DNA of 34,672 nucleotides. It comes from Chrysophaeum taylorii (lineage: Eukaryota > Sar > Pelagophyceae > Pelagomonadales > Pelagomonadaceae). Position numbers and translations under genes: made by a program. This document shows positions 2,017 to 23,248 of this stretch, in pieces (the stretch's first letter is position 1; every line of letters starts with the position of its first letter). The DNA lies in assembly GCA_029834535.1 (NCBI GenBank), contig JAQMWT010000079.1:1-34672 (forward strand), written 5' to 3'. Below the pieces are notes generated by a model. The model saw only the letters and a list, made by a program, of their open reading frames with translations. It ran no database searches and was not told where the DNA came from.

Positions 2017-2076
2017 ACATTTAAATTAAATAATTAAATGATTAAACAGACAGACAGACAAACATCTGTCGATTAG
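2017..2076 (-). repeat. Helitron 5'-terminal remnant with (GACA)n tract
   Basis: AT-rich sequence, then a short cagacagacagacaaac tract, then 'catctgtcgatta'. That last string ends every Helitron-type unit in the window. On the minus strand it is the 5'-terminal zone of such an element. It lies directly after the LINE-A 3' end and shares 'gacatttaaa' with the unit end at about 5539. Confidence 0.55.
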
Positions 2077-2870
2077 GTGTCCTGGTCACTAAGTGCACCT
2101 AGTCCCAATCTCCAACCCGCAGTTCACCTGGCTCCAGCAGTTCACTGAACCCAGTGCCCACCTACAGTGCGCGTGTGACGACGCTGAGGGGGCTTATCGG
2201 CATTGCGCCACGTCGGGGTAGGGCGTCGTCGACTCGAAGCCGCATATCCTGGGGTTGCCGATCGACAGAGAGGCACGTAGAGCTGGGCGTGGCAGACGGG
2301 CTTGGGCGAGAGGACCGACCTCGCGGGGCGTCTGGCCCTGGCTCTTGTTTCGATCGTTCGGCGTAGGCGGCCTTCAGGGATACAGGTTGAGGAGCCCGGT
2401 GACAACGACACGATCGATCATGTATCTGGTACCGTTGCAGGGCCGTGCGACGGGTCGAGGTCGCGAAGACTTTAAGCTCGCGATCAAAGTCATCCCGTTG
2501 GTTGTCAGGGAGTTGAAAACTCTACTGTAAAGAGCGAGGCGTCGTCTTCCGACCCAGCCTAGTCAGCCGAAAAGAACTCCGACGCCTCGTCTCCGGGGAA
2601 AAAGGCCGCGGTCATGCGCGCGTTGTCAGCATCGACAACATCGTTTCGACGGGGCGTGAGAATGGCGCGCTGAAAGAGCCGCCGCGGCTCGTGGAAATAG
2701 TCTGCGAGGTCGCCGTAGACGGCTTGGAGGATCACTGTCTGGCTCTCGCGCCTACCTGATCCTTACTCTCGCGCCTACCTGATCCTTACCCTAAATCGAG
2801 GGACAAACAAACAGACAGACAAACAGACAAACAGACAAACAGACAAACATCTGTCGATTAGTAGTTAGGA
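2077..2870 (-). mobile_element. Helitron-derived unit H1
   Basis: First of five related units. Read on the minus strand it starts at 2870 with TCCTAACTACTAATCGACAG, followed by a (TGTC/TTTG)n tract, a spacer and a helicase C-terminal fragment. Short repeats built on 'ggtgaactgctgg' follow on the left. The next unit begins directly at 2871, so units sit head to tail. The left end lacks the usual CACTTG terminus and is diverged. The unit is non-autonomous: no Rep (HUH) domain and no helicase N-terminus are visible. Confidence 0.6.
2166..2737 (-). pseudogene. Helitron/PIF1-type helicase C-terminal fragment (H1)
   Basis: Minus-strand fragments in changing frames follow the C-terminal order of Helitron RepHel helicases. 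There is 'LFQRAILTPRRNDVVDADN', then 'FPGDEASEFFSAD', then a segment rich in acidic residues, then a 'QGQT' block and 'QLYVPLCRSA' (canonical QLYVALSR, helicase motif VI). H1 has four Gs at about 2595-2598 where H2-H5 have three. H1 therefore keeps the FPGDE frame that the others lose, so it is closest to the ancestor here. A TAG just after FSAD is shared by all five copies. The helicase would unwind DNA during rolling-circle transposition, but this fragment lacks the Walker motifs and cannot be functional. Confidence 0.7.
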
Positions 2871-3886
2871 CAAGTGCAGGGCAGTAAGTTCACCTACTCC
2901 CAATCTCTAACCCCAGTAAGTTCACCTAGTCCCAATCTCTAACCCCAGTAAGTTCACCTGGTCCCAGTAAGTTTCATATAAGTTCACCTGGTCAGTAAGT
3001 CACCTAGTCTCACACTCTTCCGGCCTGCTGTCGCTCTCGCCCGCCAATCTAAGCTGCTTGATCCGCACGCCGCCAACCTTTGAGTGAGTTTACTCAAAAC
3101 CCTTGCTCTAAAACCCCAGCAGTTCACCTGGTCCCAGTTTCACCTGGTTCAGTTCACCTAGTCCCAATCTCAAACCCCCAGTAAGTTCACGTGGTCCAAG
3201 TTCACCTATAGTGCGCGTGTAGACGCCGGGAGGGGGCTTATCGGTATTGCGCAGCACGTGTGGGGTAGGGTATCGTCGACCCAGATGATAGCCGACAGAG
3301 AGCCACGTAGAGCTGGACGTGGCAGAAGACGGGCTTGGGAAAGAGGACGCCGACCTCGCGGGGCGTCTGGCCCTGGCTCTTGGTGATCGTTTGGCGTAGG
3401 CGGGCCTTACGGGATCCAGGTTGGAGGAGCCTCGGTGACAACGACGCATCGATCATGTCATGTACCGTTGCAGTGGCCGTGCGACGGGTCGAGGTTGCGA
3501 AGACCTTAAGCTCGCGATCAAAGTCAGCATGCCGTTGGTTGTCAGGAGTTGAAAACTCTACTGTAAAGAGCGAGGCGTCGTCTTCCGACCCAGCCTAGTC
3601 AGCCGAAAAGAACTCCGACGCCTCGTCTCCGGGAAAAAGGCCGCGGTCATGCGCGCGTTGTCAGCATCGACAGCATCGTTTCGACGGGCGTGAGAATGGC
3701 GCGCTGAAAGAGCCGCCGCGGGTCGTAGTCTGCGAGGTCGCCGTATACGGCTTGGAGGATCACTGCCTGGCTCTCGCGCCTACCTGATCCTTACTCTCGC
3801 GCCTACCTGATCCTTACCCTACATCGAGGGACAGACAGACAGACAGACAAACAAACAAACAAACATCTGTCGATTAGTAGTTAAGA
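2871..3886 (-). mobile_element. Helitron-derived unit H2
   Basis: Head-to-tail neighbour of H1. On the plus strand it begins with caagtgcagg (the element 3' terminus, CACTTG on the minus strand) and ends with gattagtagttaaga. The left 330 bases hold repeated 'agtaagttcacctggtccc' and 'tagtcccaatctctaacccc' blocks plus a conserved spacer at about 3010-3110. The helicase fragment and a gacagaca/aacaaac tract fill the rest. Its right end forms one arm of a long inverted repeat. Confidence 0.65.
3210..3762 (-). pseudogene. Helitron helicase C-terminal fragment (H2)
   Basis: Same fragment as in H1. In two minus frames I can read 'TITKSQGQTPREVGVLFPKP' and 'VFCHVQLYVALCR', the PIF1/Helitron motif V-VI region. 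On the right is the segment that reads AILTPRR in the better copies. H2 has three Gs at about 3631 and so loses the FPGDE frame. It also carries the shared TAG. It is too short and broken to work. Confidence 0.7.
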
Positions 3887-4077
3887 CAAGTGCAGGCCAG
3901 TAAGTCCACCTAGTCCCAATCTCTAACCCCAGTAAGTTCACCTGGTCCCAGTAAGTCCTAACTACTAATCTTAACTACTAATCGACAGATGTTTGTTTGT
4001 TTGTTTGTTTGTCTGTCTGTCTGTCCCTCGATTTAGGGTAAGGATCAGGTAGGCCCGAGAGTAATGATCAGGTAGGC
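3779..4077. repeat. Long inverted repeat of Helitron 5' ends (arms 3779-3885 and 3970-4077)
   Basis: The left arm runs from 'gcctacctgatccttac' through 'ccctacatcgaggga', the (GACA)(AAAC) tract, 'catctgtcgattagtagttaaga'. The right arm is its reverse complement: 'cttaactactaatcgacag', the (TTTG)(TCTG) tract, 'ccctcgatttagggtaag', 'gatcaggtaggc'. The roughly 84-base loop is a Helitron 3'-terminal piece. Two units thus meet in opposite orientation, and the DNA could fold into a hairpin of about 107 bp. Confidence 0.85.
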
Positions 4078-4740
4078 GCCGGGAGTGGGCTTATCGGTAT
4101 TGCGCAGCACGTGTGGGGTAGGGTGGAGTCGTCGACCCAGATGAGCTTATCCTCGGGGTTGCCGATCGACAGAGAGCCACGTAGAGCTGGACGTGGCAGA
4201 AGACGGGTTTGGGCAAGAGGACGCCGACCTCGCGGGGCGTCGGCCCTGGCTCTGGTGATCGTTTGGCGTCGGCGGGCCGGGATACAGGTTGGAGGAGCCT
4301 CGGTGACAGACACGATCGATCATGTATCTGGTACCGTTGCAGTGGCCGTGCGACGGGTCGAGGTTGCGAAGACTTAAGCTCGCGATCAAAGTCAGCATGC
4401 CGTTGGTTGTCAGGGAGTTGCTCTACTGTAAAGAGCGAGGCGTCGTCTTCCGACCCAGCCTAGTCAGCCGAAAAGAACTCCGACGCCTCATCTCCGGGAA
4501 AAAGGCCGCGGTCATGCGCGCGTTGTCAGCATCGACAACATCGTTTCGACGGGGCGTGAGAATGGCGCGCTGAAAGAGCCGCCGCGGGTCGTGGAAATAG
4601 TTTGCGAGGTCGCCGTAGACGGCTTGAGGATCCGTCTGGCTCTCGCGCCTACCTGATCCTTACTCGCGCCCCATCCTTACCCTAAATCGAGGGACAAACA
4701 AACAGACAGACAGACAAACAAACATCTGTCGATAGTAAGG
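4078..4740 (-). mobile_element. Helitron-derived unit H3 with helicase C-terminal fragment
   Basis: This unit lacks the usual left subterminal repeats because it abuts the inverted repeat at 4077. The minus strand carries the helicase fragment (about 4078-4632). 'RNLDPSHGHCNGTRYMIDRV' at about 4310-4370 is the typical Helitron string 'RNLdPs.GLcNGTRliv'. 'SGNPEDKLIWVDDSTLPHT' at about 4115-4170 fits the extreme C-terminus. The frame breaks between these blocks. The unit ends with a short gacagacaaac tract. Confidence 0.7.
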
Positions 4741-5602
4741 CCAGTGCAGGCCGCACCTAGTCCCAATCTCAACCCAGTAAGTTCACCTGTCCCAGTAAGT
4801 TTCGTATAAGTTCACCTGGCAGCAGTTCACCTAGCTCACCAACCTTGCTCGTCGCCTCGCTTCCGCACTAAGCTGCTTTGATCCGCACGCGCCGCCAACC
4901 TTGAGTTTACTCTAAACCCCACTCCTCGGGGATGCCGATCGACAGAGAGCCACGTAGAGCTGGACGTGGCAGAAGACGGGCTTGGGAAAAAAAAAAGAGG
5001 ACGCCGACCTCGCGGGGCGTCTGGCCCTGGCTCTTGTTGATCGTTTGGCGTAGGCGGGCCTTAAGCGATACAGGTTGGAGGAGCCTCGGTGACAACGACA
5101 CGATCGATCATGTATCTGGTACCGTTGCAGTGGCCGTGCGACGGGTCGAGGTTGCGAAGACATTAAGCTCGCGATCAAAGTCAGCATGCCGTTGGTTGTC
5201 AGGGAGTTGAAAACTCGACTGTAAAGAGCGAGGCGTCGTCTTCCGACCCAACCTAGTCAGCCGAAAAGAACTCCGACGCCTCGTCTCCGGGAAAAAGGCC
5301 GCGGTCATGCGCGCGTTGTCAGCATCGACAGCATCGTTTCGACGGGGCGTGAGAATGGCGCGCTGAAAGAGCCGCCGCGGGTCGTGGAAATAGTCTGCGA
5401 GGTCGCCGTAGACGGCTTGGAGGATCACTGTCTGGCTCTCGCGCCTACCTGATCCTTACTGTCGCGCCTACCTGATCCTTACCCTAAATCGAGGGACAAT
5501 CCTTCAAGCTCCCCACACACACCCCTCTTAGCAGTCGACATTTAAAGACAAACAAACAGACAAACAAACAAACAGACAAAGATCTGTCGATAGTAGTTAG
5601 GA
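4741..5602 (-). mobile_element. Helitron-derived unit H4 with helicase C-terminal fragment
   Basis: The left side (4741-4915) holds the subterminal 'agttcacctg' repeats. The helicase fragment (about 4921-5428, minus) begins with 'GDLADYFHDPRRLFQRAILT' and continues to 'VFCHVQLYVALCR' through frameshifts, one of them at an A-run near 4986. The last roughly 80 bases of the fragment seen in H2 and H3 are missing. Near the right end, about 40 bases at 5500-5540 resemble the LINE-A 3' end (1970-2030) and are followed by gacatttaaa and a (GACA/AAAC)n tract. The unit ends in gatagtagttagga. Confidence 0.65.
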
Positions 5603-5656: not shown

Positions 5657-5866
5657 TGTTGCCGAAATGAGTCGTAGTGACTCCGCTCCCCGTTCGATCC
5701 GAATCACGTAAAATGAACCCTGCAGTAGTATCCGTGATCCCCTGGATCTTCACCCACAAATGCGTCGGCTTCGCACTCACTCGACCATTACGAACCGACT
5801 CGCCGCCGAAAAACAGGAGGTCGATAGTCCGGGAGTTGGACTATCGATTCCCGTTTCTGAGGCCAC
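5657..5866 (-). mobile_element. Ty3-type leader fragment next to LTR-A
   Basis: On the minus strand this sequence follows the inner end of LTR-A, so it is probably the leader of another Ty3-2-family element cut off at 5656 by the Helitron array. It starts G-TGGCCTCAGAAACGG, and a primer-binding site would be expected to start with TGG. One minus frame is open for about 40 codons to 5657 ('AKPTHLWVKIQGITDTTAG') but I do not recognise it. A perfect hairpin lies at 5821-5847. Confidence 0.4.
5821..5847. other. Perfect 10-bp hairpin in the Ty3-type leader
   Basis: tcgatagtcc (5821-5830), a 7-base loop gggagtt, then ggactatcga (5838-5847). It is a perfect stem within 50 bases of the LTR in the transcribed leader. 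Such a position would suit an RNA packaging or dimerisation structure, but that role is inferred. Confidence 0.6.
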
Positions 5867-6200
5867 TGCAGTGGTTTTTCTCAGACACCCGCCCCTCTTG
5901 GCCGGACCAGGGGCCTCAACAACCCTTTCTCCCAACCCGAACCGCGGGTGAAACCACCACACGCCCGATCTCAGCGTAAACACTCACGCCATCACGAAAA
6001 TCGGACAATCAAAAGAGGGTACTAGCAAGAAGACAGCAAGAACGCAATACAAATGCCAGGTACATTGAGTTCAGTGGAAGCGCAGGTGGGGGTGTCAAGA
6101 CGACACCCCCCCCCATAATTGCAAGGTCAGTACCAGGGCAACAATCAGGGTAAGTCAGTTGGCAGGCAAGCAAGTGGGCGGAATGGGCGTTACTACCACA
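5867..6200 (-). mobile_element. LTR-A of the Ty3-2 family (334 bp)
   Basis: It begins TGCAGTGG and ends TACCACA, so it has TG...CA ends. It matches LTR-B (6241-6481 plus 10564-10657) along its whole length with scattered differences. It keeps the uninterrupted sequence 'gacgacacccccccccat' at about 6101-6118, exactly where LTR-B is split by Ty3-1, so it serves as the empty-site control. Its 5-bp flanks (gccac and gatgg) do not match. It is therefore not an intact solo-LTR insertion and is more likely the 5' LTR of a neighbouring element. The 40 bases 6201-6240 between LTR-A and LTR-B show nothing recognisable. Confidence 0.75.
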
Positions 6201-6240
6201 GATGGTCTGTCCCCCGAATCAGGGTAAGGGGGAATTGTCC

Positions 6241-6481
6241 TGTAGTGGTTTCTCTCAGATACCCGCCCCTCTTGGCCAGGCCAGAGGCCTCAACAACCCT
6301 TTCTCCCAACCCGAACCGCGGGTGAAACCACCACGCGCCCGATCTCAGCGCAAACACTCACGCCATCACGAAAATCGGACAATCAAATGAGGGTAATAGC
6401 AAGAAGACAGCAAGATAGCAATAAAAATGCCTGGTACATTGGGTTCAGTGGAAGCGCAGGTGAGGCTGTCAAGATGACACC
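6241..6481 (-). mobile_element. LTR-B (3' LTR of Ty3-2), outer part
   Basis: It begins TGTAGTGG and matches LTR-A. At 6481 it is interrupted by Ty3-1. The last five bases (6477-6481, acacc) are one copy of the Ty3-1 target duplication. The other part of this LTR is at 10559-10657. Confidence 0.85.
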
Positions 6482-6792
6482 TGCGGCAGGAAAGGATTAT
6501 GCGCGCCGACATCTTACCCTGCTTCGACTGTGCCCTCGACGTCTCGGGGGTGCCGAGCGGGTCGAGGAGCATTTCCTTCCTGTTGATCAACCTTCAAACT
6601 GCCCACGAGCTTCAATCCGAAGACTCGTGAAATGATTTATGGTAGAGATTAGTCGATTTGAAAGGAGTAAACGCCTGGTGGCGTTACAAATACGTACGTC
6701 CGGGGTTGAAGTAGAGTCCAGTAAACGGGAAGTGGGGTAGAGAACTCGATAGAACTAGGGGTAAGGATGGCGGTGTAAGGGTTACCGCCACA
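6482..6792 (-). mobile_element. Ty3-1 3' LTR (311 bp)
   Basis: Plus-strand ends TGCGGCAGG...CCGCCACA. The direct repeat is at 10248-10558. On the minus strand it starts TGTGGCGGTAACC, directly after a G-rich polypurine stretch. Confidence 0.92.
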
Positions 6793-6805
6793 GGACTCCC
6801 CTGCT
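6793..6805 (-). promoter_or_regulatory. Polypurine tract of Ty3-1
   Basis: The minus strand reads AGCAGGGGAGTCC directly before the 3' LTR, the expected site for priming second-strand DNA synthesis. Ty3-2 has a comparable AGGGGGCTCC stretch at its own LTR. Confidence 0.6.
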
Positions 6806-6821
6806 TTGATAGGAGCTGTCC

Positions 6822-7580
6822 TCAGCGACGGCGGTGGTGCGACTGACGAGATTTTCGGCGCGGACCGTCGGTGGACGGGACTTGAGTGCGCGTCTGACGA
6901 GCGCGTTGTTGAGCTTGGAGTTGTTCTTGTTCTTGGCGCGCGCGATGCGCGAGAATATCTTTGACTCGTTGGACGATCGGAGGAGGGACCGATTTCCCCT
7001 GGAGCTTGAACCGGGGAACCAGGACGTCGATCTCGTCCGGGGCGAAGTCGGTCGCGCAAGGGGTGCAGTGAGGTGTTAATTTCTCGGTGCGGGTGAAGCT
7101 GCGGCCGAGTGCCGTCTTGAATTCCGAGCTCAGCGTGCGACCTTCAAGCGGTGAGGTCGGGTCGAAATACGATGGGTCGTCGCGCGGGCCCAGGTCGGAG
7201 TAAAACTGGAGGGCGACTCGGTCTTGAAGATCATAATAATCCTCGAAAACCTCGGCGACGTAGAGCTTCTTGCGCCAATCGGGGTCTCGGGCCGACGGGA
7301 TTCGGAAGATGACGAACTTGCCGCGCTCGTACTCGTCGCGGAATCCGGGGATCGGACGACGGATCGTGGCATCGAGTGCGGGAGGCATCGACACTGCGGT
7401 GATCTGTTGGACCGACACGATTCGCTCTTCGGTGGCTCCGTAAACCGATCGGATATTGTACGAGACAGGCGACAGACGCCCGGTGATGAGGAAGGGGCCG
7501 TGCCACTCCGGTCGCAACCTGTTTTGGGACTGCGGAATGTACAGTAATACGTGCGAATTGACATTGTATTCGACATCCAC
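6822..7580 (-). pseudogene. Ty3-1 integrase C-terminus plus conserved C-terminal domain
   Basis: This 252-aa frame begins with the integrase C-terminal barrel: 'NRLRPEWHGPFLITGRLSPV' is the usual Ty3 'kL.p.w.GPf.V...isp' motif. About 50 residues later comes a block shared with Ty3-2: 'GKFVIFR', 'KKLYVAEVFEDYYD', 'VALQFYSDLGPRDDP', 'TDFAPDEIDVLV'. This block (about residues 85-205) is not a chromodomain by eye. The strand pattern loosely recalls Tudor- or BAH-type reader domains, which is an inference. The tail is rich in Q and R and basic at the end. The frame is separated from the preceding integrase piece by a frameshift at about 7580-7640, so the protein is not made as one chain. Confidence 0.75.
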
Positions 7581-7639
7581 GTTCTCGGCGTCGTAAGCGA
7601 GTTTCTGCGTCTTCTTGGCATGATCCTGCGCTTTGGCGA

Positions 7640-8311
7640 CTACTTCGAGTAATACTTGAAGCTCTGCTTGACTTTCAGTAAAGCGTAGGATCGTGGTCGC
7701 GGCGAAACGGGGTCAGGCCGAACCAACAAGGTGAAGTCCGTGGGCGACATCGGCTGCCGGTTCAGGCGCAACAGGAATGGCGAGATTTGCGTGCCGGGTA
7801 TGAACTTTCGGTTGTAGCAAAACGACACGCACCGGACGAGGGCCGGCCAGTCGGTGATGCTGCGACTCCCGAGGCGGCGGGCCCGGAGGAACGCCTTGAG
7901 GAGTCGATTGACTTGCTCCGCGGGGTTCGCTTGGGCGTGGTATGGTCTCGGCGTCCTGTGCTTTCGGCCGGCCCGGAACGCTATGGCGTCCTCTTGCGGC
8001 GGGTTCGGCCCTCTGTCTGCAACCAACTGATCGTTGAGCGGATGTAAGTCGACGGCCGCGCGGAGAGCGTTAGATTTCCCGAGCTCTACCCCTTTCTTCG
8101 GAAGCATGAAGATCGGGAATCCCCGAGGGGAGTTGGCGGGTCTTACGACTCCGTCTCGGCGCCATTCGGAAATCTGCTTGCGAAGATATTCGATCTTGGC
8201 TGGAGCGAGGCGGTACGGCGACGTCTCGATGGGCTTTGGGTTCGCGTCTTTGAATCGGAGGGACACCGGTCGAGGTCCCCGGTCCTCATAATGGGATCGA
8301 AGGAGGCCCAA
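7640..8311 (-). pseudogene. Ty3-1 RT start fused to integrase end (internal deletion)
   Basis: The N-terminal half is the start of a Ty3 RT: 'RRDGVVRPANSPRGFPIFML' and 'AVDLHPLNDQLV' match the opening of RT and its counterpart in Ty3-2. After about 25 unmatched residues the frame resumes inside integrase at 'YHAQANPAEQVNRLLKAFL', the strand-helix around the catalytic Glu, and continues into 'CYNRKFIPGTQISPFLL'. The YxDD box, RNase H, the zinc-binding HHCC region and the first two integrase catalytic Asp residues are all missing. The deletion joint lies at about 7945-8025. Compared with Ty3-2, roughly 2 kb has been lost. The product could not reverse transcribe or integrate. Confidence 0.85.
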
Positions 8312-8778
8312 GAGTATCGAACGCAGTGCGCCAACATGAGTTTGGCATCCTCGTCCAAGTGCGAGTTGTTCGGGATGCCTAGCTCGTCGACTACCTTGTC
8401 CACTTCTTCCTTTGTGGGGTTATTGTCGATTATGGCCTCGTTATCTTTCAGATGGTTGGGCTGTTGCGGTTGCGGCGCGCCATCTTCGTCCCGTGGTGCG
8501 TTTTTCCCTAATACGTCAAACCGTTCCTCATATTTGAACCGGTCGGGCTCTTTGGTCTTGTCGCCCGTTGGTTTCTTGGTTGGTTCTTCGTCCCTTGGTT
8601 CGCCTTTCGAGGTTGCGTCGTTTTTGCTCGCGCGGGTACCCCCTTGGGAAGATGAGTGCATCGTCCCTGATGCAGCGGGCTTCGGAGGGGTCAAAGGAAG
8701 ATCCGGCGGTTGCCATTTCGCTTTGTCCTGGAGGTCGCGGTTGGGCACCCAGCGGATTACGCGAGTCGAAACGTTCAC
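8143..8778 (-). pseudogene. Ty3-1 linker between MTase and RT
   Basis: This frame is the same as that of the upstream MTase and is divided from it by one TAG (8878-8880), so MTase and RT probably formed one polyprotein. The first 100 residues are rich in P, K, E and T, with no domain visible. From 'RFKYEERFDVLG' to 'DEDAKLMLAHCVRYSW' it aligns with Ty3-2 ('YFNRYDVPW' to 'DEKLMMKHLISYSW'), a conserved stretch just before RT. Near 8275 a frameshift moves the RT start into the overlapping frame 7640-8311, and the last 45 residues here are out of frame. Confidence 0.75.
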
Positions 8779-8877
8779 GAGGGCGCTCCGAGGCTCGGGT
8801 GCGGTGGCTCCGGTGCGGGTGTGGTCGGAGGGGGCGCGCTCGATGATGTATGTTTCGGGGTTCGTCGGTGGGTACGA

Positions 8878-10152
8878 CTACGTTCGGGCGCGCGATTCCG
8901 ATGTTGCGGAGCGTGGGCGGCAGTTGTGGGCGTCGAGGACTATGTACGCCATGGAAGACGGGGGTATCACGGCCGCTAGATGCTTCATTCGGTCCGTGAC
9001 TGTGAGGTTACCCCATGCGAGATCGCTCGGCATTGTGAGAGCCTCCGCGAGCATCTCCAGTCTGAGCGCTTTGGTGTCCGAAGGCGTGGGTCCTGTTCGC
9101 ACCCCGTTCCGCGTGATGGTGTATATCGGTGCCGTGGCCTCTCGCGTGCATCCAGAGTTGTTGCGCTGGATGAGAGGCTGCGCGGGGTCGAGTCCGAGTT
9201 TGGGCGGCGAAGGTGACCTGAATGGTGCCGCACGTTTGGGACGTCGGATGAGCTGAAGAGGCCAGCTCGTGATGATCATGCGCCGACGGGTACTCATGAG
9301 GTCCGGCGTCGTCGTCCATAGATCGACGACGGTGATGAAACCTTGCCGCAGCGTGATTTTCGAGCGGATTGAAGGTTCCTGCTCGATGATCCAGCGTCCT
9401 ACTCCGGAAAGCTGGAAGAGCTTGATGGTCCAATTGGTCGCGGAGACTCCTTTCCCGGCGTCGCGGGCCGTAAGGTTGCACAAGGCGGAGTCTACGCATG
9501 GGGGCGTGCCAACGAAAAGTGCCGTGGGCCATTGGCTTTCATGCAGGTAACCTTTGACCAGAGAAAGGACCCTGTCGTACCGACCGCCGAGGGTGTGCTG
9601 GACGACAGGTACTCCTGGGAAGTTTCTCTCATGGACTTCTTTGGCGGTGTCGGGTGCGTCGATGACGAGCACGACCTTGTACGCGGTTCCGAACCACTCA
9701 TTGTTCCGGTAGATACCCTGTGTGCCCCCTCCAATCCCGCTGAAGAATATCACGACTGGCGTCACGTTCTCCGGGATCCAGGAGAGCGCCTGGTGCTTGT
9801 CGATGATCGCTTGCTCGGCGGTCCGGGACCTCGGCGGTTCTTGCGGCTGCGCCTGCGGGGCTTGTTGGGCGAGTCGATGCTCGTCTCCGGATTTCGCGCA
9901 AACATAAGTTTTCACACGTATGCCGCGTTCGACGCTCCGCTCAGGACCACGTCGGGAAGCTTCTTTGCCACTCAGTTCCCAGGCTGGTGGTGATGCCGAG
10001 AGATGTTGTCTCGGCCGGGTACCCTTCTTGTTGTTGTGCGTGTCTTCACGCGGGCGTACGATCTCGTCGACGACCGTACGGAGCACGTTACGTGTGCTAG
10101 TCTTCTCTCGAGCGCCTTGAAGAGCTTCGGGGGTGATCAATCCCCGCGGCAA
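8878..10152 (-). CDS. Cytosine-5 DNA methyltransferase encoded by Ty3-1
   Basis: This 424-aa frame has no internal stop and carries the C5-MTase motifs in order. Motif I is 'FFSGIGGGTQGI' (136-147), which binds S-adenosylmethionine. 'VVLVIDAPDTA' (160-170) is the motif II region. Motif IV is 'GTPPCVDSALCN', with catalytic Cys219 (codon 9496-9498). Motif VI is 'WIIEQEP' (Glu257), and 'STRRRMI' (287-293) matches QxRxR of motif VIII. A target-recognition-like stretch follows, and 'EMLAEALTMPSDL' and 'IPPSSMAYIVLDA' (396-408) match motifs IX-X. Residues 1-130 are low-complexity. The 5' LTR is only 95 bases upstream, and the frame would read on into RT but for a TAG. The role inferred is methylation of cytosine in DNA, perhaps the element's own copies. 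Target and activity are unknown. The shadow frame on the plus strand (8291-9256) is not coding. Confidence 0.85.
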   Translation of the reverse strand: MPRGLITPEALQGAREKTSTRNVLRTVVDEIVRPREDTHNNKKGTRPRQHLSASPPAWELSGKEASRRGPERSVERGIRVKTYVCAKSGDEHRLAQQAPQAQPQEPPRSRTAEQAIIDKHQALSWIPENVTPVVIFFSGIGGGTQGIYRNNEWFGTAYKVVLVIDAPDTAKEVHERNFPGVPVVQHTLGGRYDRVLSLVKGYLHESQWPTALFVGTPPCVDSALCNLTARDAGKGVSATNWTIKLFQLSGVGRWIIEQEPSIRSKITLRQGFITVVDLWTTTPDLMSTRRRMIITSWPLQLIRRPKRAAPFRSPSPPKLGLDPAQPLIQRNNSGCTREATAPIYTITRNGVRTGPTPSDTKALRLEMLAEALTMPSDLAWGNLTVTDRMKHLAAVIPPSSMAYIVLDAHNCRPRSATSESRART

Positions 10153-10229
10153 CTATCGGCGGTGCTTGTGCTGTTCCCAGCGCTTGGCTTGGGGTTGCAG
10201 GTTCGGAGATCTCGCCGATGTAGCAAGAT

Positions 10230-10245
10230 CTCGTATCCTCCACCA
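10230..10245 (-). promoter_or_regulatory. Possible primer-binding site of Ty3-1
   Basis: Two bases inside the 5' LTR the minus strand reads TGGTGGAGGATACGAG. A PBS complementary to a tRNA 3' end starts TGG, as here. I cannot identify the tRNA without the host tRNA set. Confidence 0.4.
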
Positions 10246-10247
10246 TC

Positions 10248-10558
10248 TGCGGCAGGAAAGGATTATGCGCGCTGACTTCTTACCCTGCTTCGACCGTGCC
10301 CTCGACGTCTCGGGGGTGCCGAGCGGGTTGAGGAGCGCTTCCTTCCTGCCGATCAACCTTCAAACTGCCCACGAGCTTCAATCCGAAGACTCGTGAAATG
10401 ATTTATGGTTGAGATTAGTCGATTTGAAAGGAGTAAACGCCTGGTGGCGTTACAAATACGTACGTCCGGGGTTGAAGTAGAGTCCAGTAAACGGGAAGTG
10501 GGGTAGAGAACTCGACCGAACTAGGGGTAAGGATGGCGGTGTAAGGGTTACCGCCACA
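10248..10558 (-). mobile_element. Ty3-1 5' LTR (311 bp)
   Basis: Direct repeat of 6482-6792 with the same TG...CA ends. About 11 mismatches by eye, of which five are C/T or G/A changes at CpG positions. As the 5' LTR it should hold the element promoter, but no core promoter motif stands out. Confidence 0.92.
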
Positions 10559-10657
10559 ACACCCCCCCCCCATAATAGCAAGGTCAGTACCAGAGCAACA
10601 ATCAGGGTAAGTCAAGTGGCAGGCATGCAAGTGGGGGGAATGGGCGTTACTGCCACA
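10559..10657 (-). mobile_element. LTR-B (3' LTR of Ty3-2), inner part
   Basis: Bases 10559-10563 (acacc) are the second copy of the Ty3-1 target duplication. From 10564 the sequence continues LTR-B and matches LTR-A to the end TGCCACA at 10657. Removing Ty3-1 and one acacc gives a 335-bp LTR, against 334 for LTR-A. Confidence 0.85.
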
Positions 10658-10692: not shown

Positions 10693-12021
10693 TCAAGGGT
10701 GACGAAGGTCACGCTCACAAATGGTACGATAAGCTCGGTCAGCTACATCAGCAGGAACTTTGTTGCTGTGGAGGCCGAAGTTACTGACGAGGACGTCGAT
10801 TTCATCCGGGCGAAAATCAGTCACACAGGGTTCACAGCCCTCCATGTTTGGTCGTAAGCGTGTGAAGCTACCTCCGTCCGGGTCTTTGTATTCTGGTCTT
10901 AAACGTCGCTCAGCCAGAGGCTTAGTAGGATCAAAAACACGAGGATCATCGCGCGGTCCCAAATCGGCATAGTAGTGAAGCGCAACTGTATCATTGTCGT
11001 GGTCATATTCTTCGTAGACTTCGGCAACATATATACGCTTCTTCCACGCGTTGGATCGTCCTTTCACCCTGAAAATCACGAACTTACCATGTTTGAAACG
11101 GTCGCGGTCTGAAGGTAAATGCAGAGGGGCTGAAGAAGTGTCGATGGTTGGCACTTTCAAAGGCACAATCTGTTGTACAGATACTACAACCGATTCAGCA
11201 TCATCGTCGTTGACGTCCTGGATTTCGCAAACGACGGGAGAGATCTTTCTGGTAACTATGTAAGGTCCGCGCCAAATGGGCCGTAGCTTGTGGCGCGTCT
11301 TAGGCACGAAACGCAGAACATAATCACCTGGGGGAAACTGGATGTCAATTTGGTGGGCATCATAGTTGAGTTTTTGGCTCTCCTGTGCTTTCTGGTGAGC
11401 TCGTGTAACGAGTCGACTATGAAATTCAAACTTGTTCTTAAAGTCCACCAGAATCTGATGACGTGATTGCGGTATATCACGCTGTTCACTCAAAGGATGG
11501 TAATCGGGTGGTAACAGGGGTTGCTTGCCAGTACGCATCATGAAAGGTAAAATCTTCGTTCCCGGAATGTACATCCTATTGTACATGAATGCCACATATG
11601 GGATGAAATTCGACCAATCTGGCTGACGCTGTTCATCGATCGCAGCTCGCAAGAAGGCTTTGATAAAACCGGTTGACACGCTCAGTATGATTACTCTGAG
11701 GGTGGTAGTACGATAACGTACGTTGAATTGACGAACAAACGTGCGAAATAACCTGTTCGCGAACTCATTTCCATTATCCGTGACTATGCACCGTGGGAGA
11801 CATCCCTCAAGTAAAATCTTGTCCACAAACGCGTTCCAAACCGAATAGTCATGTTGTGTGTTGATCAGAGCTAACTTCAAGAAATGCGATGCTGCATCGT
11901 ACATTGCGAGTATGTACGTGTACAGGTCAGCGCCTCGCAGAGGTCCAATCAAATCCATACCTAGGACATAGCAATCTCCGACGCGATTCGGTTGACAGAG
12001 CAAGACATGACGCCTAGGCAT
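10693..12021 (-). pseudogene. Ty3-2 integrase core and conserved C-terminal domain
   Basis: 442-aa frame. 'GMDLIGPLRGADLYTYILAM' holds the first catalytic Asp and 'CIVTDNGNEFANR' the second. The catalytic Glu (in 'HTERVNR', about 11671-11692) is out of frame. A single-base change near 11700-11710 and an extra base in the A-run at 11664-11668 take about 40 bases out of frame and back, so a full-length but catalytically dead protein would result. Then come 'CYNR'-like 'FMYNRMYIPGTKILPFMMRT', the integrase barrel 'HKLRPIWRGPYIVTRKISPV', and the C-terminal domain shared with Ty3-1 ('GKFVIFRV', 'KKRIYVAEVYEEY', 'VALHYYADLGPRDDPRVFDP', 'TDFRPDEIDVLVSNFGL'). Family role: insertion of the cDNA into the genome. 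Confidence 0.88.
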
Positions 12022-12085
12022 GGTGGATCGAATCTTCTTGCAAATAACACAGGCATCGACGAACTTACTAACTGACGATGAGACG

Positions 12086-13204
12086 TTACCAATACCGTTC
12101 TAATATTTGATTCGCGGTGGAGTCTCGTCCTACATGGCCTCCGAACAATCCTCGGCGATGCATGGCGATTACACGCTTTCGCATAGACGGAGGGACCACG
12201 ATCAGACGTTGAGAATCTGAATCATCGACCTTATACAACACGTTGTCATTGATCTCATATGGTACGGATGACTGCTCGTCTTGATCTTTCTGTTCAGAAT
12301 CGAGATTTCGTCTGATGCGCTTGCATGTGTCATCCTCAGCTTGTTCTTTCGCTATCTCATCGAGAGTGATCTCATCCTCCGCTTGATCCGCAAAAGGGAG
12401 ACGTTCGACGGAGTCAACTGGCTCAGATTCGTACGAGAATTGAGGCGGTTGTACGTTCTGTCGCGTACTAACTGCTACCATAGCTGCGGTGGGTCCGCTG
12501 TCCGTCAGCATGGGCATCGTCACCGAAGAGAAGGTGAAGCAAGCTGTGCCAGGGACATCGGTGGGGATTTCTTGGAAAATCAAAAAAGCTTCATTGATCG
12601 GTTCCCCGTCTTCATCTCTCTCGATCAATTTGTCGATAGGGTTGCGCGACAGACAATCCGGAATACGCATGCCAGGGGAGCTTCCAGGCTTGTATCCGAG
12701 CTCCCGATCGAACGCAGCAAGCCGCATAGCCCATCGTGCTAACTGCCCAGACGTATGATTCGAATCCCGCAGAAACGTTAAGTTACGATGATCCGTCTCT
12801 AACTTTGTCTGATGACCTTCGATATAAAATCGGAAGTTTTCGAGAGCAGAGAGTACTGCGAGGAGTTCCAAGCGCCGAGGATCATACTTCCTCATCGACT
12901 TAGGCACGGTTCGACTCCAGTACTCGATAACTCTCCCTTCGATTCTTTCTCTTCCATCGTCGTCAACGACTGGTACTTTTTGAAATAGGTAAGCACCCAA
13001 CCCATGCGCGGAAGCATCAGTTCGAATGTAAAAGGGCAACGAGTAATCAGGATGGTAGACGCCCTTCGACGTGACAATAGCCTCGATGATGGCATCCCAA
13101 GCTTCCGGACACTCTTTCGTCCACTTGAATTTTTCACGTCCGGCAACGTCAGTTGTCTTAATGGCTCTGCAAGTTTCGCAAAATTCCTTACATAACGCCG
13201 GCAA
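12086..13204 (-). pseudogene. Ty3-2 RNase H and integrase zinc-binding region
   Basis: 372-aa frame. The N-terminal part is the RT connection region ('KFKWTKECPEAWDAIIEAI'). RNase H follows: 'YIRTDASAHGLGAYLFQK' (first catalytic Asp), 'RKYDPRRLELLAVLSALENF' (Glu), 'LETDHRNLTFL' (Asp), 'PDCLSRNP'. After an acidic linker the integrase zinc-binding region begins with 'MHRRGLFGGHVGRDSTANQI'. A TAA and frameshift at about 12086 separate it from 'ACVICKK', which supplies the CxxC half of the HHCC site. Family role: RNase H removes the RNA template during cDNA synthesis. Upstream it overlaps the RT thumb frame through another frameshift near 13200. Confidence 0.9.
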
Positions 13205-13500
13205 AAGCTCCCCATTCCAGGGAAAGATCGCACTTGCTTCTTAGGGTCAGCGTCCGACAAAGTGCCAGGAATTGGCATGTGTCTGATGGCTTCTAAAGAC
13301 CTTGGTGATGGAAGAAGTCCGTTCGGGGTGGATAAATGACCCAAAAACTCAATGACTTCTAGCATAAAATGGATCTTCTTGATCTTGGCGCTGTACCCTT
13401 GCAAGGCGAGATGGCGATATAACTTACACAAGCCACTGCAAGTGATTATTTGTATCTGCGTGACCGGCGAGAATATCGTCGATATATGCCACGAGATCAC
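12892..13500 (-). pseudogene. Ty3-2 RT thumb region (frameshifted)
   Basis: Bases 13440-13200 continue RT in a new frame after the YIDD box: 'LCKLYRHLALQGYSAKIKKI', 'LEVIEFLGHLSTPNGLLPSP' and 'SFPGMGSFCRRYVRNFAKLA' are the palm-thumb segments of Ty3 RTs (canonical 'FLG..vs..Gi.pdp', 'FLGl..YYRrFI..fs..a'). The rest of this frame, below about 13200, is a shadow of the RNase H frame. One indel joins it to each neighbour. Confidence 0.85.
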
Positions 13501-14545
13501 GATATAGCCATTTCGACAAGTCAGTGTTCAGTTGCTTGCAAAACAAAGTTCCAGCTGGTTTGACTCCCAAAGGTAGGCGCATGTAGCTGTACGCTCCCAG
13601 AGGACTAGTGAAGGTTACCACATCTTGGGCATCTAGCGACAATCGTAAATTGTGATAGCCCCAACGAATATCCAAACTGGAACGACAGAACTTGTCGATG
13701 AGAAACATCAACGCGTCAGCCGTGCTCACACTCGGCCAGCTATCATCCTTGAGCAATGCACTGAGGCGCCGTAGGTCGACAGGTGCTCTGTAAGCATTGG
13801 AAGTGCCAGGCTCAGCACCTTTCTTAGGCAACATCAAAATAGGGAAACCCCATGGAGAATTCGCGGGACGAATAACTCCGTCTCGGGTCCATGCTTCAAT
13901 CTGCATCCGCATACACTCAATCTTTTCTTTCGACAACCGATATGGTGAGAGTTTGACGGGAGTCGGGTTCTCTTCTTTGAACCGGAGCGTCACTTCAGGT
14001 GAATCAACAGGTCCCATCACATAATCGGAAAATGCCCACGAATACGAGATTAGATGCTTCATCATCAGCTTCTCGTCATCATCTAAAGCAGGATGCGCTG
14101 CAATACCCAAGTCAGTCATCACCTCTTCGACCTGCGCGACGGTCGGAGGGATGACCTGCATGCTCTCTTGCTCCGCTAAATGAGGAGGCATCACCGGTAG
14201 AGGTTGACCATGTTCGTCGTGAGGCGCGTCCGCCCACGGAACGTCGTACCTATTGAAATACGCAGGTCGCTCCTTCGCGGTGCCTTCTTCATCCGCAGTT
14301 GCGGAGGGCTGGTTGCCGGCTTGGTTGCTCTGCATAATAGCAGTGGCGACGGTGCCCCCTGCAAAAGATTGAGCCGTCCCAGGCGATGTAACCGAAGGTG
14401 GTGGCGGGGGGGTGGAGGCAGCAGCTGATGGTGCAGGACTCGCAGGAGAATAGAGTTCATCGGGCGAAATCCATGACACACTTCGAGTGGCAGGGTCGAG
14501 CGTTGGAATGCGCGACTCTACCAACAACTGCCTGTCAGTGCACAA
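13424..14545 (-). pseudogene. Ty3-2 linker and RT fingers-palm
   Basis: 373-aa frame counted from a TTG codon. It is open at the 5' side only to a TGA, because the element is cut at about 14561. Residues 1-100 form a proline/serine-rich linker. Residues 105-175 match the pre-RT block of Ty3-1. RT follows: 'TRDGVIRPANSPWGFPILML', 'PVDLRRLSALL', 'SLDIRWGYHNLRLS' (catalytic Asp), 'TFTSPLGAYSYMRLPLGVKP', 'VAYIDDILAGH' (YxDD at about 13470-13490). A frameshift follows. All visible catalytic residues of RT are intact, so decay is by indels more than by substitution. Confidence 0.9.
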
Positions 14546-14705: not shown

Positions 14706-16029
14706 ATGGCGAAACGAGCAGCAATAGCCGCACCCAAGGCAGCCACCGGTGCGGATATCCTCGAGCTCGAAGCCCCTGTTGTTGAGCTTCTCAACGATGG
14801 AAATCGGTTTCAGCTTCAAAGCCGCAAAGTCTCGCTCCAAGTGAGACAGATTAGGCAATTACTGCGCTTTCACCACGCAGGTGCCCTCTTCGAGTACGAC
14901 TCGTACGAGGCTTACTCCAGGTCCAGCCCTGACTATGAAGTCGTGCCCAATAGGATCTCGGACCAGGTTTTCCTGGATTGGCAACGCGCCAGAGTGGCAG
15001 AACTCAACCTCCAGATGTTGAAGATTTGCCTCCTGAATATCAGAGCTGGCACTTCACATCTGAGGCGTTCCCGCACTTACCAGACCTCGAAGTTGCACAG
15101 TTGGCCACTGTCTGCTACGATAATGAGGTTAGGGCTCATCGGCCCGAGATAAATAATCGTTTTATAGATGCTGAACGGGTGCTCCATCGTACTTACCCCC
15201 GTGAGCTCGCCTTTGATGATAGAATTATCGCTCCAGTGTCTACATTTGCCTTTTCACATACCGATTGGCAAACTTATCAGAGTACCTATGCCACATTTTT
15301 GTATACTTTCTTTGAACATGAAAGTGTGGCCAAACCCGCTCTCGCGGCCTGGCCAGCCATTACCGAGGTATACAACCGGCAGTATCACCCAAACAAAACC
15401 CGAGCCATTATGCTCATTGCCTTTAACTGTTACGAAGCTGTTTCGTCTAATGATGTTTCGTATTTGAAACAGCAATTTAACGCTGTTGTGCATAATCCTA
15501 ACTGGCATGTACATGTTTTTATTGAGTCTGTGCAGTCCTTCAGACATCTCTCTTTTCAGCTTAACCAGGAAGAGACAAATCTGCAGTTCGACGAATCTAC
15601 ACTTTGTCGCAAAATATACGAAGAGCTCTATAAGCATTTCGCCGATAATGCTAGCAATAACCGCTATGATAGGGGTTGGGTCGACTGGTGTATGACTTAA
15701 GAGTCCAGGTCATCTGCGAGAGCACGACCCGATGCTGACAGACCATGTCACCCGTCTGATTCATCTGCCATTCTTGAGTTTGCTTTGGATCTATACAATT
15801 CAGTTTCCAACAATGCAAGCGATAAAACACGTCTTGAGCCCCCAGTCTCATGGATTCCTTATGTTGAAGGGCTGTCTACTCACCAGAAACCCAAACTACT
15901 TTTGACTCAGCTGCTGGACAACACGGACTCTGAGCTGGATTACACAGCTCATGTTTTCGCGTGGCTTACCACTCCAGCACATGGACAACACTCGAAACCC
16001 GCTTTTAACGCACGACGTCTCCGTAACCC
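14706..16029 (+). pseudogene. Copia-3 Gag (broken, C-terminally truncated)
   Basis: It starts at ATG 14706, placed by match to the Copia-4 start. Gag forms the capsid-like particle in which reverse transcription takes place. Here it is recognised by its place between leader and protease in Copia-4 and by the match among three copies. Shared blocks: 'GADILELEAPVVELLN', 'KVSLQVRQIRQLLR', 'YDSYEAYSRSSPDYE', 'LPPEYQSWHFTSEAFPHLPD', 'KPALAAWPAI', 'YLKQQFNAVVHNPNW', 'RYDRGWVDWC'. There is a frameshift at about 15010 and a TAA at 15698-15700 where Copia-4 has Tyr. The frame reopens to 16029 ('PVSWIPYVEGLS', 'FNARRLRN') and is then cut by the end of the Copia-R LTR. No zinc knuckle is seen. Confidence 0.8.
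16025..16029. repeat. Predicted 5-bp target site of Copia-R (AACCC)
   Basis: These five bases of the Copia-3 gag sit directly before the Copia-R LTR end (TGGTGAG at 16030). A second AACCC is expected at the far end of Copia-R, which is outside the window. Confidence 0.4.
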
Positions 16030-16143
16030 TGGTGAGATTTGACCCTCTCCGGGTACATGGTAGAGACTGCGTGCAGTCTTAGGCGTGCACAGACCATTCC
16101 GCTTGTCAGATGCGACTACACAAGGTAGGGATTTAAGCCCTAA
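16030..16143 (-). mobile_element. Copia-R 3' LTR, outer part
   Basis: Reverse complement of about 23136-23248. It begins TGGTGAGATTTGACC on the plus strand, the LTR end. It contains 'agactgcgtgcagtctta', an internal short palindrome also found in the Copia-2 LTR. It is cut by H5 at 16144. Confidence 0.85.
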
Positions 16144-16480
16144 CAAGTGCAGGCCAGTAAGTTCACCTAGTCCCAATCTCTAACCCTAGTAAGTTCACGT
16201 GGTCCCAGCAAGTTCACCTAGTCCCAATCTCTAACCCCAGTAAGTTCAGTGTAAGCCCACTCGTGCTCACACCCACTCACCCCACTCTCCTTCGAGCTCG
16301 TCGCTCTCACCTCCGCCAATCTAAGCTGCTTTGATCCGTACACGCCGCTAGCCTTTGCGTTCACTCTAAAAACCCCAGTAAGTTCACTTGGTCGCAGTAA
16401 GTTCACCTGGTCACTAAGTTCACCTAGTCCCGATCTCTAACCCCAGTAAGTTCACCTGGTCCCAGTAAGTTAACCTATAG

Positions 16481-17065
16481 TGCGCGTGTAGACGCTGGGA
16501 GGGGGCTTATCGGTATTGCGCAGTACGTGTGGAGTAGGGTGGAGTCGTCGACCAAGAAGAGGATATCCTCGGGGTTGCCGATCGACAGAGAGCCACGTAG
16601 AGCTGGACGTGGCAGAAGACGGGCTTGGGCAAGAGGACGCCGACCTCGCAAGGCGTCTGGCCCTGGCTCTTGGTGATCGTTTGGCGTAGGCGGGCCTTAA
16701 GGGATACAGGTTGGAGGAGCCTCGGTGACACGACACGATCGATCATGTATCTGGTACCGTTGCAGTGGCCGTGCGACGGGTCGAGGTTGCGAAGACCTTA
16801 AGCTCGCGATCAAAGTCAGCATGCCCTTGGTTGTCAGGGAGTTCGAAACTCGACTGTAAAGAGCGAGGCGTCGGCTTCCGACCCAACCTAGTCGGCCGAA
16901 AAGAACTCCGACGCCTCGCCTTCGGGAAAAAAAGGCCGCGGTCGTGCGCGCGTTGTCAGCATCGACAACATCGTTTCGACGGGGCGTGAGAATGGAGCGC
17001 TGAAAGAGCCGCCGCGGGTCGTGGAAACAGTCTGCGAGGTCGCCGTAGACGGCTTGGAGGATCAC
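16481..17065 (-). pseudogene. Helitron helicase C-terminal fragment (H5)
   Basis: It begins 'AVYGDLADCFHDPRRLFQRS', continues 'ILTPRRNDVVDADNAR' and after frameshifts 'TITKSQGQTPCEVGVLLPKP' and 'VFCHVQLYVALCRSATP'. It has the shared TAG after the FSAD region and the same start and end of captured sequence as H1-H4. All units therefore descend from one truncated derivative, not from separate truncations. Confidence 0.75.
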
Positions 17066-17109
17066 TGCCTGGCTCGCGCGCCTACCTGATCCTTACCCTA
17101 AATCGAGGG

Positions 17110-17201
17110 ACAGACAGACAAACAGACAAACAGACAAACAGACAAACAGACAAACAAACAAACAAACAAACAAACAAACAAACAAACAGTCTGTCTGTGT
17201 A

Positions 17202-17266
<65 letters not shown>

Positions 17267-17268
17267 GA
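17110..17268. repeat. Tetranucleotide tract that switches strand: (GACA/AAAC)n then (GTCT)n
   Basis: About 80 bases of gacagaca, aacagac and aaac repeats are followed, after 'cagtctgtctgtgtatg', by about 70 bases of pure gtct repeats. The other units carry only the first type on this strand. The two halves are partly complementary and could fold back. Confidence 0.9.
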
Positions 17269-17292
17269 ACATCTGTCGATTAGTAGTTAGGA

Positions 17293-22800: not shown

Positions 22801-22849
22801 AACAAATAGAACCAAAAGGTTTGAGGTAATCTTGTTGGGGAACATTGCA
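19802..22849 (-). pseudogene. Copia-R pol: integrase C-terminus, RT and RNase H
   Basis: Frames 22930-21161 and 20977-19802 are the same frame, split by one TAA (21161-21163). The frame before 22849 is read from the Copia-2 LTR and is not coding. 'VPQQDYLKPFGSICYLHM' is the end of a copia integrase. A long P/S/A-rich linker follows (about 22600-22300). RT: 'FNTFSPMAQLAGIRCVLALA', 'YHIDVPNAFVQAPI' (catalytic Asp), 'KSFYGLRQCPALW', then 'LSVDDVVII' (about 20966-20980), which has Ser where YVDD has Tyr. RNase H: 'VAFVDADNAPSYE', 'STHEIELITL', 'GDSASAIHLSNNP', 'WFRIRDYV', 'ADGLTKPF'. One stop in about 1000 codons implies fairly recent decay. The region before the integrase lies outside the window. 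Confidence 0.92.
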
Positions 22850-23248
22850 CCAGAGAGCTACACTATTATGTGTACGACACTGGAACATTTCACGCCTTTC
22901 ACCCCTATCTCTGCAAGAGGGTTTTCTCACCGTAATGCGGCTTCCCTCTTTCCTTCCTTACCCCTTCCGCCCTTTATCTCAGACTATGAAGAATTAGATC
23001 TGCAGTTCACTTCCAACAAGGAGTAGACCTCCAGGTGCGTACCGTCAGGTGTGGGGTTGTCTGTTTAAGTAATGGGGGCTTCGTCCCTCGTTGTCCGTGT
23101 AAACGCTTCTATGGGACCCAATGTCCTTAAGGAGTTAGGGCTTAAATCCCTACCTTGTGTAGTAGCATGTGACAAGCGGAATGGTCTGTACATGCCTAAG
23201 ACTGCACGCAGTCTCTACCATGTACCCGGGGAGAGTCAAATCTCTCCA
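22850..23248 (+). mobile_element. Copia-2 5' LTR (399 bp)
   Basis: It begins CCAGAGAGCTACAC and ends GAGTCAAATCTCTCCA. It matches the Copia-R 3' LTR in reverse complement. The 3' end has the usual CA. The 5' end lacks the usual TG in both copies, so one or two boundary bases are uncertain. Confidence 0.82.

What the first reader, a model, noticed from the sequence alone, without database searches (positions are those of the whole stretch)
8878..10152. Stop-free C5 DNA methyltransferase frame inside a Ty3-type element that has lost RT, RNase H and most of integrase
Seen: a 424-aa frame with motifs I, IV (PPC, Cys219), VI (Glu257), VIII (TRRR) and X in order, inside LTRs with a target duplication. 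The replication genes of the same element are deleted or frameshifted. Known: cytosine methyltransferases captured by retrotransposons have been reported in Symbiodinium dinoflagellates and the charophyte Klebsormidium. Inference: the MTase may have been kept under selection, or the element was mobilised in trans as a small MTase carrier. It may methylate new copies to hide or regulate them.
Basis: partly seen in the sequence, partly recalled or inferred. Interest (0 to 1): 0.95.

Follow-up and report, generated by a model that had tools for sequence, protein, structure and literature searches.

The report
Methyltransferase inside algal jumping genes
A DNA-methylating enzyme domain sits inside the main protein of jumping genes in an unnamed alga; the copy in this window is a decayed fossil, but related copies that lost their own copying machinery still multiplied and largely kept the domain.

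Summary
The stop-free 424-aa frame is real (minus strand, 8881-10152) but is no free-standing gene. It is the C5-methyltransferase (MTase) domain of a Ty3 Pol polyprotein, in full copies followed by RT-RNaseH-INT. The window copy is a fossil: no in-frame ATG before residue 286, about 12 frame-scrambled residues, a ~5-kb gag-PR loss not seen in 21 other loci, and the RT-RH-INT deletion. The latter is shared: 14 of 29 places span the same junction, so a deleted element multiplied, presumably with RT and integrase from relatives that also carry the MTase. MTase Ka/Ks among 12 deleted copies is 0.25 against 0.61 for the RT remnant, but trees show MTase segments exchanged with autonomous copies. 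In the six copies whose MTase groups with no autonomous copy it is 0.40 against 0.75. Selection in the deleted lineage is thus likely, not proven. A sister Ty3 family shows strong constraint (0.06), and a Ty1/copia family in the same genome carries another MTase. The host has a red-type rbcL. Such elements are known from Symbiodinium and Klebsormidium; I found no report of an RT-less carrier lineage. No CpG-deamination footprint was found.

The parts
6482..10558 (-). Whole LTR element (minus orientation), target duplication ACACC at 6477-6481 and 10559-10563
   Evidence: LTR match and paralogous empty site; flank letters
10248..10558 (-). 5' LTR
   Evidence: 95.4% identical to the other LTR; 41 matches of a 300-base LTR query in the genome
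6482..6792 (-). 3' LTR
10230..10245 (-). Candidate primer-binding site (TGG...; tRNA not identified)
   Evidence: 14-mer found at 29 places, control 0; at 9 of the 29 it directly abuts an LTR match listed; ARAGORN found no tRNA in 5 of these loci
8881..10152 (-). Stop-free frame; MTase domain about residues 110-406, residues 1-95 are former leader or upstream sequence
   Evidence: homologues start at about residue 96
9487..9507 (-). Motif IV TPPCVDS with Cys219
   Evidence: Pro218 and Cys219 invariant in 19 aligned members
9727..9747 (-). Motif I FFSGIGG
9858..9879 (-). Junction of the second deletion (gag and protease lost)
   Evidence: Against L039 the window matches both sides with about 5 kb missing; about 7 nt microhomology; not seen in L010-L030, 21 loci
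7952..8550 (-). RT N-terminal remnant, frameshifted
   Evidence: tblastn in two frames
7959..7967 (-). Shared RT-to-integrase deletion junction
   Evidence: Same position in 12 of 22 family-A loci; 14 of 29 places genome-wide
7392..7945 (-). Integrase C-terminal remnant, frameshifted
   Evidence: tblastn in two frames

Best explanation
The frame is the decayed MTase domain of a Ty3-type LTR retrotransposon whose full form encodes Gag and a Pol in which the MTase lies between a protease-like stretch and RT. In one lineage a single in-frame deletion fused the RT N-terminus to the integrase C-terminus, leaving Gag, protease-like stretch and MTase. That non-autonomous element then multiplied, using RT and integrase of autonomous relatives with the same LTRs (shown: shared junction, many sites, mosaics; inferred: supply in trans). 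The MTase most likely travels in the particle as a Pol product and modifies new element DNA, or nearby nucleic acid, before or at integration (inferred). It is kept because this helps the element (inferred from Ka/Ks). The window insertion lost gag and protease as well, during or after its own insertion, and is now dead.
For: Order MTase-RT-RH-INT in an RT-bearing copy and in sister family B. Same junction at 14 of 29 places and 12 of 22 loci. Shared LTRs with RT-bearing copies, e.g. C451. MTase Ka/Ks 0.25 against RT remnant 0.61 in deleted copies, with autonomous values 0.20 and 0.32; 0.40 against 0.75 in the six copies whose MTase groups with no autonomous copy; Gag 0.29 in three deleted copies; shifted frames 0.87-1.53. 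Family B MTase 0.06 between subgroups. Catalytic Pro-Cys, Glu and Arg invariant in 19 members.
Against: MTase and upstream segments of some deleted copies cluster with autonomous ones, so low Ka/Ks may be imported. L025/L030 pair 0.81 (0.46-1.83). In one search, 5 of 12 deleted copies have a stop in the MTase and one is truncated; one search lists one more stop in L012. The integrase C-terminal remnant (0.32) is nearly as constrained as the MTase over all 12, so low Ka/Ks is not unique to the MTase. No CpG depletion or CpG transition excess. No activity, expression or methylome data.
Confidence: 0.5

Rival explanations
1. The deleted lineage is an ordinary defective passenger: it copies itself with borrowed enzymes, and its MTase looks constrained only because template switching with autonomous copies keeps importing selected sequence.
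For: MTase trees mix L016/L017/L019 with L013/L024 and L010 with L018; no fixed differences between deleted and autonomous copies in the MTase or the region before it, 12 in the RT remnant. L025/L030 pair 0.81.
Against: Six copies whose MTase is split from all autonomous ones by a 100/99 branch still give 0.40 (0.28-0.57) against 0.75 (0.54-1.10) for the RT remnant.
Confidence: 0.3
2. The MTase acts mainly on RNA (DNMT2-like, e.g. the tRNA primer or genomic RNA) and not on DNA.
For: The only C5-MTases among PDB profile matches are two DNMT2 entries (E 0.06-0.07), and the host's DNMT2-like protein aligns at 64% probability. No CpG footprint.
Against: The matches are weak and rest mainly on motif I; other C5-MTases were not compared by profile. 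IEQE in place of ENV is not diagnostic. Published retroelement DNMTs tested in yeast include ones that methylate CpG (PMC5890265).
Confidence: 0.17
3. The window frame is a domesticated host gene born from the element.
For: Stop-free frame directly behind the element's leader.
Against: No in-frame ATG before residue 286, scrambled stretch, frame exit after the domain, deletion not seen in 21 other loci.
Confidence: 0.03

Closest known systems
KnitGypsy-Dnmt3 of Klebsormidium nitens (PMC5890265; parts 1-3 of 7 of the text read, plus passages)
   Same: Ty3/Gypsy LTR element with a cytosine DNMT in the Pol ORF, many copies, purifying selection on the DNMT
   Different: Charophyte host, Dnmt3-type DNMT; position within Pol not stated in the text I read; no RT-less carrier lineage mentioned in what I read
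SymbioLINE-Dnmt and SymbioDIRS-Dnmt3 of Symbiodinium (PMC5890265, same parts read)
   Same: Hundreds of retroelement-borne DNMTs, some active on CpG in yeast
   Different: LINE and DIRS, not LTR Ty3 or Ty1; the paper says Symbiodinium Copia elements lack a DNMT domain
Statement that DNMT3s occur in LTR Copia and DIRS elements (PMC12344493, passages read)
   Same: Names Copia as a carrier of a DNMT
   Different: One sentence citing the 2018 paper, whose LTR example is Gypsy; no architecture in the passages I saw
Accessory-domain review (PMC6338049, passages read)
   Different: No RT-less lineage in the passages; does not say which of these hosts have the C5 type, so it limits any claim that the host lineage is new
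Orchid Ty3/Gypsy elements with an RNA demethylase domain (PMC9289625, passages read)
   Same: Nucleic-acid-modifying enzyme captured by Ty3 elements
   Different: Demethylase in an additional ORF, not an MTase inside Pol
Non-autonomous LTR elements such as TR-GAG, BARE-2, Morgane, LARD (recalled, no paper seen)
   Same: Multiply with borrowed enzymes
   Different: As recalled, none keeps an MTase

Membership tests
C5 cytosine MTase (PF00145) | Profile match | tested here: met
   11 of 19 aligned A/B members at E up to 0.1, best 1.3e-6; the window member none. dcm model weak (E 0.0007-0.001, under its cut-off) in the two B members and absent in the one A member tested
C5 cytosine MTase (PF00145) | Motif I glycines and motif IV Pro-Cys | tested here: met
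   Gly139, Gly142, Pro218 and Cys219 invariant in 19 members
C5 cytosine MTase (PF00145) | Motif VI ENV | tested here: not met
   IEQE: Glu kept, Asn and Val replaced
C5 cytosine MTase (PF00145) | Motif VIII QxRxR and motif X GN | tested here: inconclusive
   Arg289 and Arg291 invariant without the Gln; X-like stretch lacks GN (by eye)
C5 cytosine MTase (PF00145) | Methyl transfer to C5 of cytosine | not testable with these tools
   No assay; single-sequence model too poor (pLDDT 37)
Ty3/Gypsy LTR element | LTRs, target duplication, RT before RNase H before integrase | tested here: met
   LTRs and duplication in the window; domain order in L040 and L045. The window copy itself lacks these enzymes
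KnitGypsy-Dnmt3 | DNMT inside the Pol ORF of a Ty3 element | tested here: met
   MTase and RT in one frame in L040 and L045
KnitGypsy-Dnmt3 | Dnmt3-type DNMT | not tested
   No tree with reference DNMTs was made
Non-autonomous LTR element mobilised in trans | Shared internal deletion in several insertions | tested here: met
   14 of 29 places
Non-autonomous LTR element mobilised in trans | Autonomous partner with matching LTRs | tested here: met
   RT-bearing copy on C451 has LTR matches at 77091 and 87852 on either side; no movement observed

The most novel reading that the evidence does not exclude
An RT-less, integrase-less Gag-PR-MTase element is maintained as a dedicated methyltransferase carrier: it borrows polymerase and integrase, contributes MTase to shared particles, and is selected for that. 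In the same genome two LTR superfamilies (Ty3 and Ty1/copia) each captured an MTase just downstream of a protease-like stretch, so an MTase in the particle is a recurrent, convergent need of this alga's retroelements.
Probability: 0.3. Interest if true: 0.85.

Novelty: new variant of a known kind. Interest (0 to 1): 0.7.

Why it matters
Why a retroelement should carry an enzyme of the silencing type is open. Elements that cannot copy themselves and yet keep the MTase separate its benefit from RT and integrase, and Ty3 and Ty1/copia captures side by side in one genome give a natural replicate. Methylome and activity work in one alga could then answer the question directly.

Tried and rejected
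Structure prediction of the window frame alone gave pLDDT 37; no fold search was run on it. Three protein searches (none at E up to 0.01 among the candidates sharing short words) and one scan of viral contigs (50 pattern matches, none confirmed) found no relative, so nothing outside this genome is known from here; prokaryote genome contigs were not scanned. hhalign of the Ty3 MTase profile against the Ty1 MTase profile gave probability 0.2%: a shared capture is not supported, but the profiles are shallow and it is not excluded. ARAGORN found no tRNA in five PBS-matching loci or in the window; Rfam found nothing in the window at its gathering scores. The in-frame RNaseH-integrase deletion in family-B copy L047 was tested as a second carrier lineage: 1 of 40 scored matches (527 candidates) spans it, so it looks private. 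The window's Copia-like element matches the family-C RT weakly (32%) and shows no family-C MTase. Literature: nine searches of open PMC text; no listing showed a non-autonomous LTR element that retains an MTase, and most subscription papers are not held.

Full report
What is there. The window is a whole contig (C79) of an unnamed 70.8-Mb assembly in 697 contigs. The stop-free frame 8881-10152 lies on the minus strand. In that direction the element runs: 5' LTR (10248-10558), candidate primer-binding site (10230-10245), a leader fused directly to the MTase domain, an RT N-terminal remnant, an integrase C-terminal remnant, and the 3' LTR (6482-6792). The LTRs differ at 15 of 324 aligned positions. 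The flanks carry ACACC twice, and 5866-6201 is a paralogous copy of the target without the insertion. It is a clean transposition product.

The window copy is dead. It has no in-frame ATG before residue 286, so the catalytic part lacks an ordinary start. Two compensating single-base indels scramble about 12 residues, and after about residue 410 the frame leaves the family sequence. Against relative L039, 9858-10558 matches the 5' end and 6481-9879 the region from the MTase on, so about 5 kb (gag and protease) is missing, with about 7 nt of microhomology. None of the 21 other family-A loci (L010-L030) shows this second deletion.

The family. The frame finds 100 matches in the genome, with 99 of 951 candidates scored, so this is a lower bound. 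Family A comprises the window, L010-L029 at 81-90%, L030 at 63% and C490 at 68-82%; family B lies at 41-47%. In RT-bearing copy L040 the order is MTase, RT, RNase H, integrase zinc finger, integrase core, integrase C-terminus. A protease-like stretch before the MTase was read by eye from the translation and has no Pfam hit; a separate Gag frame precedes it. Family B has the same order in a 2,890-aa frame. Its MTase is strongly constrained between two B subgroups (Ka/Ks 0.06, 0.05-0.09, Ks 1.66), like its RT N-part (0.08); Ks this high is near saturation.

The deleted lineage. Of 22 family-A loci, 12 share the same RT-to-integrase junction, in two slightly different sequence versions; 8 carry RT sequence and 2 end before the junction. 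A search with the 140-base junction gave 29 places, 29 of 29 candidates scored: 14 span it, 12 match only the integrase side, 3 only the RT side. C25 and C521 look like duplicate haplotypes. In one deleted copy the fused Pol frame is uninterrupted (1,885 codons stop to stop), so the deletion kept the frame. One deletion followed by spread to many sites implies RT and integrase from elsewhere, and RT-bearing family-A copies with the same LTRs exist.

Selection. Pairwise Nei-Gojobori Ka/Ks over the deleted copies: MTase 0.25 (0.19-0.32), region before it 0.45 (11 copies; the window lacks it), RT remnant 0.61 (0.45-0.77), integrase remnant 0.32 (0.23-0.42). Over 7 autonomous copies (L028 left out as a duplicate of L027) the first three are 0.20, 0.27 and 0.32. 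Gag over three deleted copies is 0.29. Shifted frames give 0.87-1.53. The trees qualify this. In the MTase, L016, L017 and L019 group with autonomous L013 and L024, and L010 with L018; in the RT remnant no deleted copy falls inside the autonomous clade; fixed differences between the two sets are 0 before the MTase, 0 in it and 12 in the remnant. Segments have been exchanged, as expected if both RNAs share particles. Six deleted copies (L012, L014, L020, L025, L026, L030) are split in the MTase tree from all autonomous ones: there the MTase is 0.40 (0.28-0.57) and the RT remnant 0.75 (0.54-1.10). Two other groups (L016/17/19 and L009/10/23) give 0.31 and 0.31 against 0.63 and 0.81, but their MTases neighbour autonomous ones. 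The pair L025/L030 gives 0.81 (0.46-1.83). I take selection in the deleted lineage as likely, not proven. In one search, 5 of 12 deleted copies have a stop in the MTase and one is truncated; one search lists one more stop in L012. Two of the 7 autonomous copies also have a stop there.

What the MTase is. In 19 aligned members Pro218, Cys219, Gly139, Gly142, Glu257, Arg289 and Arg291 are invariant. PF00145 matches 11 of 19 (best 1.3e-6), not the window copy. The PDB profile search gives DNMT2 at E 0.06-0.07 on the motif-I region, other matches being unrelated proteins at E 0.46 or worse. hhalign with a DNMT2-like host frame gives 64%. It is a divergent C5-MTase; whether DNA or RNA is the substrate is open. 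Element CpG observed/expected is 1.24-1.26, and C-to-T per C cell over 21 family-A copies is 0.021 at CpG against 0.019, 0.013 and 0.022 at CpA, CpC and CpT: no sign of long-term CpG methylation.

A second capture. Of the 8 PF00145 loci fetched (L003-L008) belong to another family with LPCQ and ENV motifs. In L053 one 1,952-aa frame holds this MTase, then a weak integrase core (E 0.006) and RVT_2 (E 1.6e-38): a Ty1/copia order, with a protease-like stretch before the MTase seen by eye only. The genome gives 155 matches (150 of 642 candidates scored; some copies appear in two pieces). Its MTase Ka/Ks over 7 copies is 0.16, its flanks 0.18 and 0.20. Profile comparison does not link it to the Ty3 MTase.

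Host. One contig carries a 488-aa rbcL with an rbcS-like frame (by eye) beside it; its best PDB matches (7yk5, 5mz2 and others) are, from recall, red-type (form ID) enzymes. The host is thus probably an alga with a red-lineage plastid, neither a charophyte nor, by rubisco type, a peridinin dinoflagellate (recalled). The 18S request did not complete.

Comparison. C5-MTases in LINE and DIRS elements of Symbiodinium and in a Gypsy Pol ORF of Klebsormidium are published (PMC5890265, parts 1-3 of 7 and passages read), so the kind is known. What appears new is the RT-less carrier lineage and the Ty1/copia capture beside a Ty3 one. Against full novelty: PMC12344493 (passages) names LTR Copia in one sentence, citing the 2018 work, and PMC6338049 (passages) says methylase-bearing Ty3 and DIRS elements occur in stramenopiles and red algae, without separating adenine from cytosine types by host.

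Noticed in passing
L053 (G000:C96:59500-69400), 4506-5402: A different C5-MTase domain inside a Ty1/copia polyprotein, upstream of integrase and RVT_2; 155 matches in the genome (lower bound).
   Followed up: partly
L047 (G000:C477:2000-11900), about 5990: A family-B copy with its own in-frame deletion from RT to the region after integrase; found once among 40 scored matches.
   Followed up: yes
window 10693-14545: Neighbouring Ty3 element with RT, RNase H and integrase (RT N-part 56% identical to L040), broken into several frames; no MTase match there, but its 5' part is missing or replaced, so absence is not shown.
   Followed up: partly
window 2028-5600 and 16028-17290: Repeats of roughly 0.8-1.0 kb with GACA/AACA-type microsatellites, several copies in each region.
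   Followed up: no
window 19802-22930: Degraded Copia-like element (RVT_2, minus strand) without a family-C MTase match.
   Followed up: partly
L044 (G000:C634) 3822-4904; L002 (G000:C621): Two further C5-MTase frames outside families A-C: a 360-aa DNMT2-like one and a long frame with a dcm match.
   Followed up: no
G000:C25 and C521; C10 and C297: Pairs of contigs give the same hits at nearly the same positions, probably uncollapsed haplotypes, so counts are slightly inflated.
   Followed up: no
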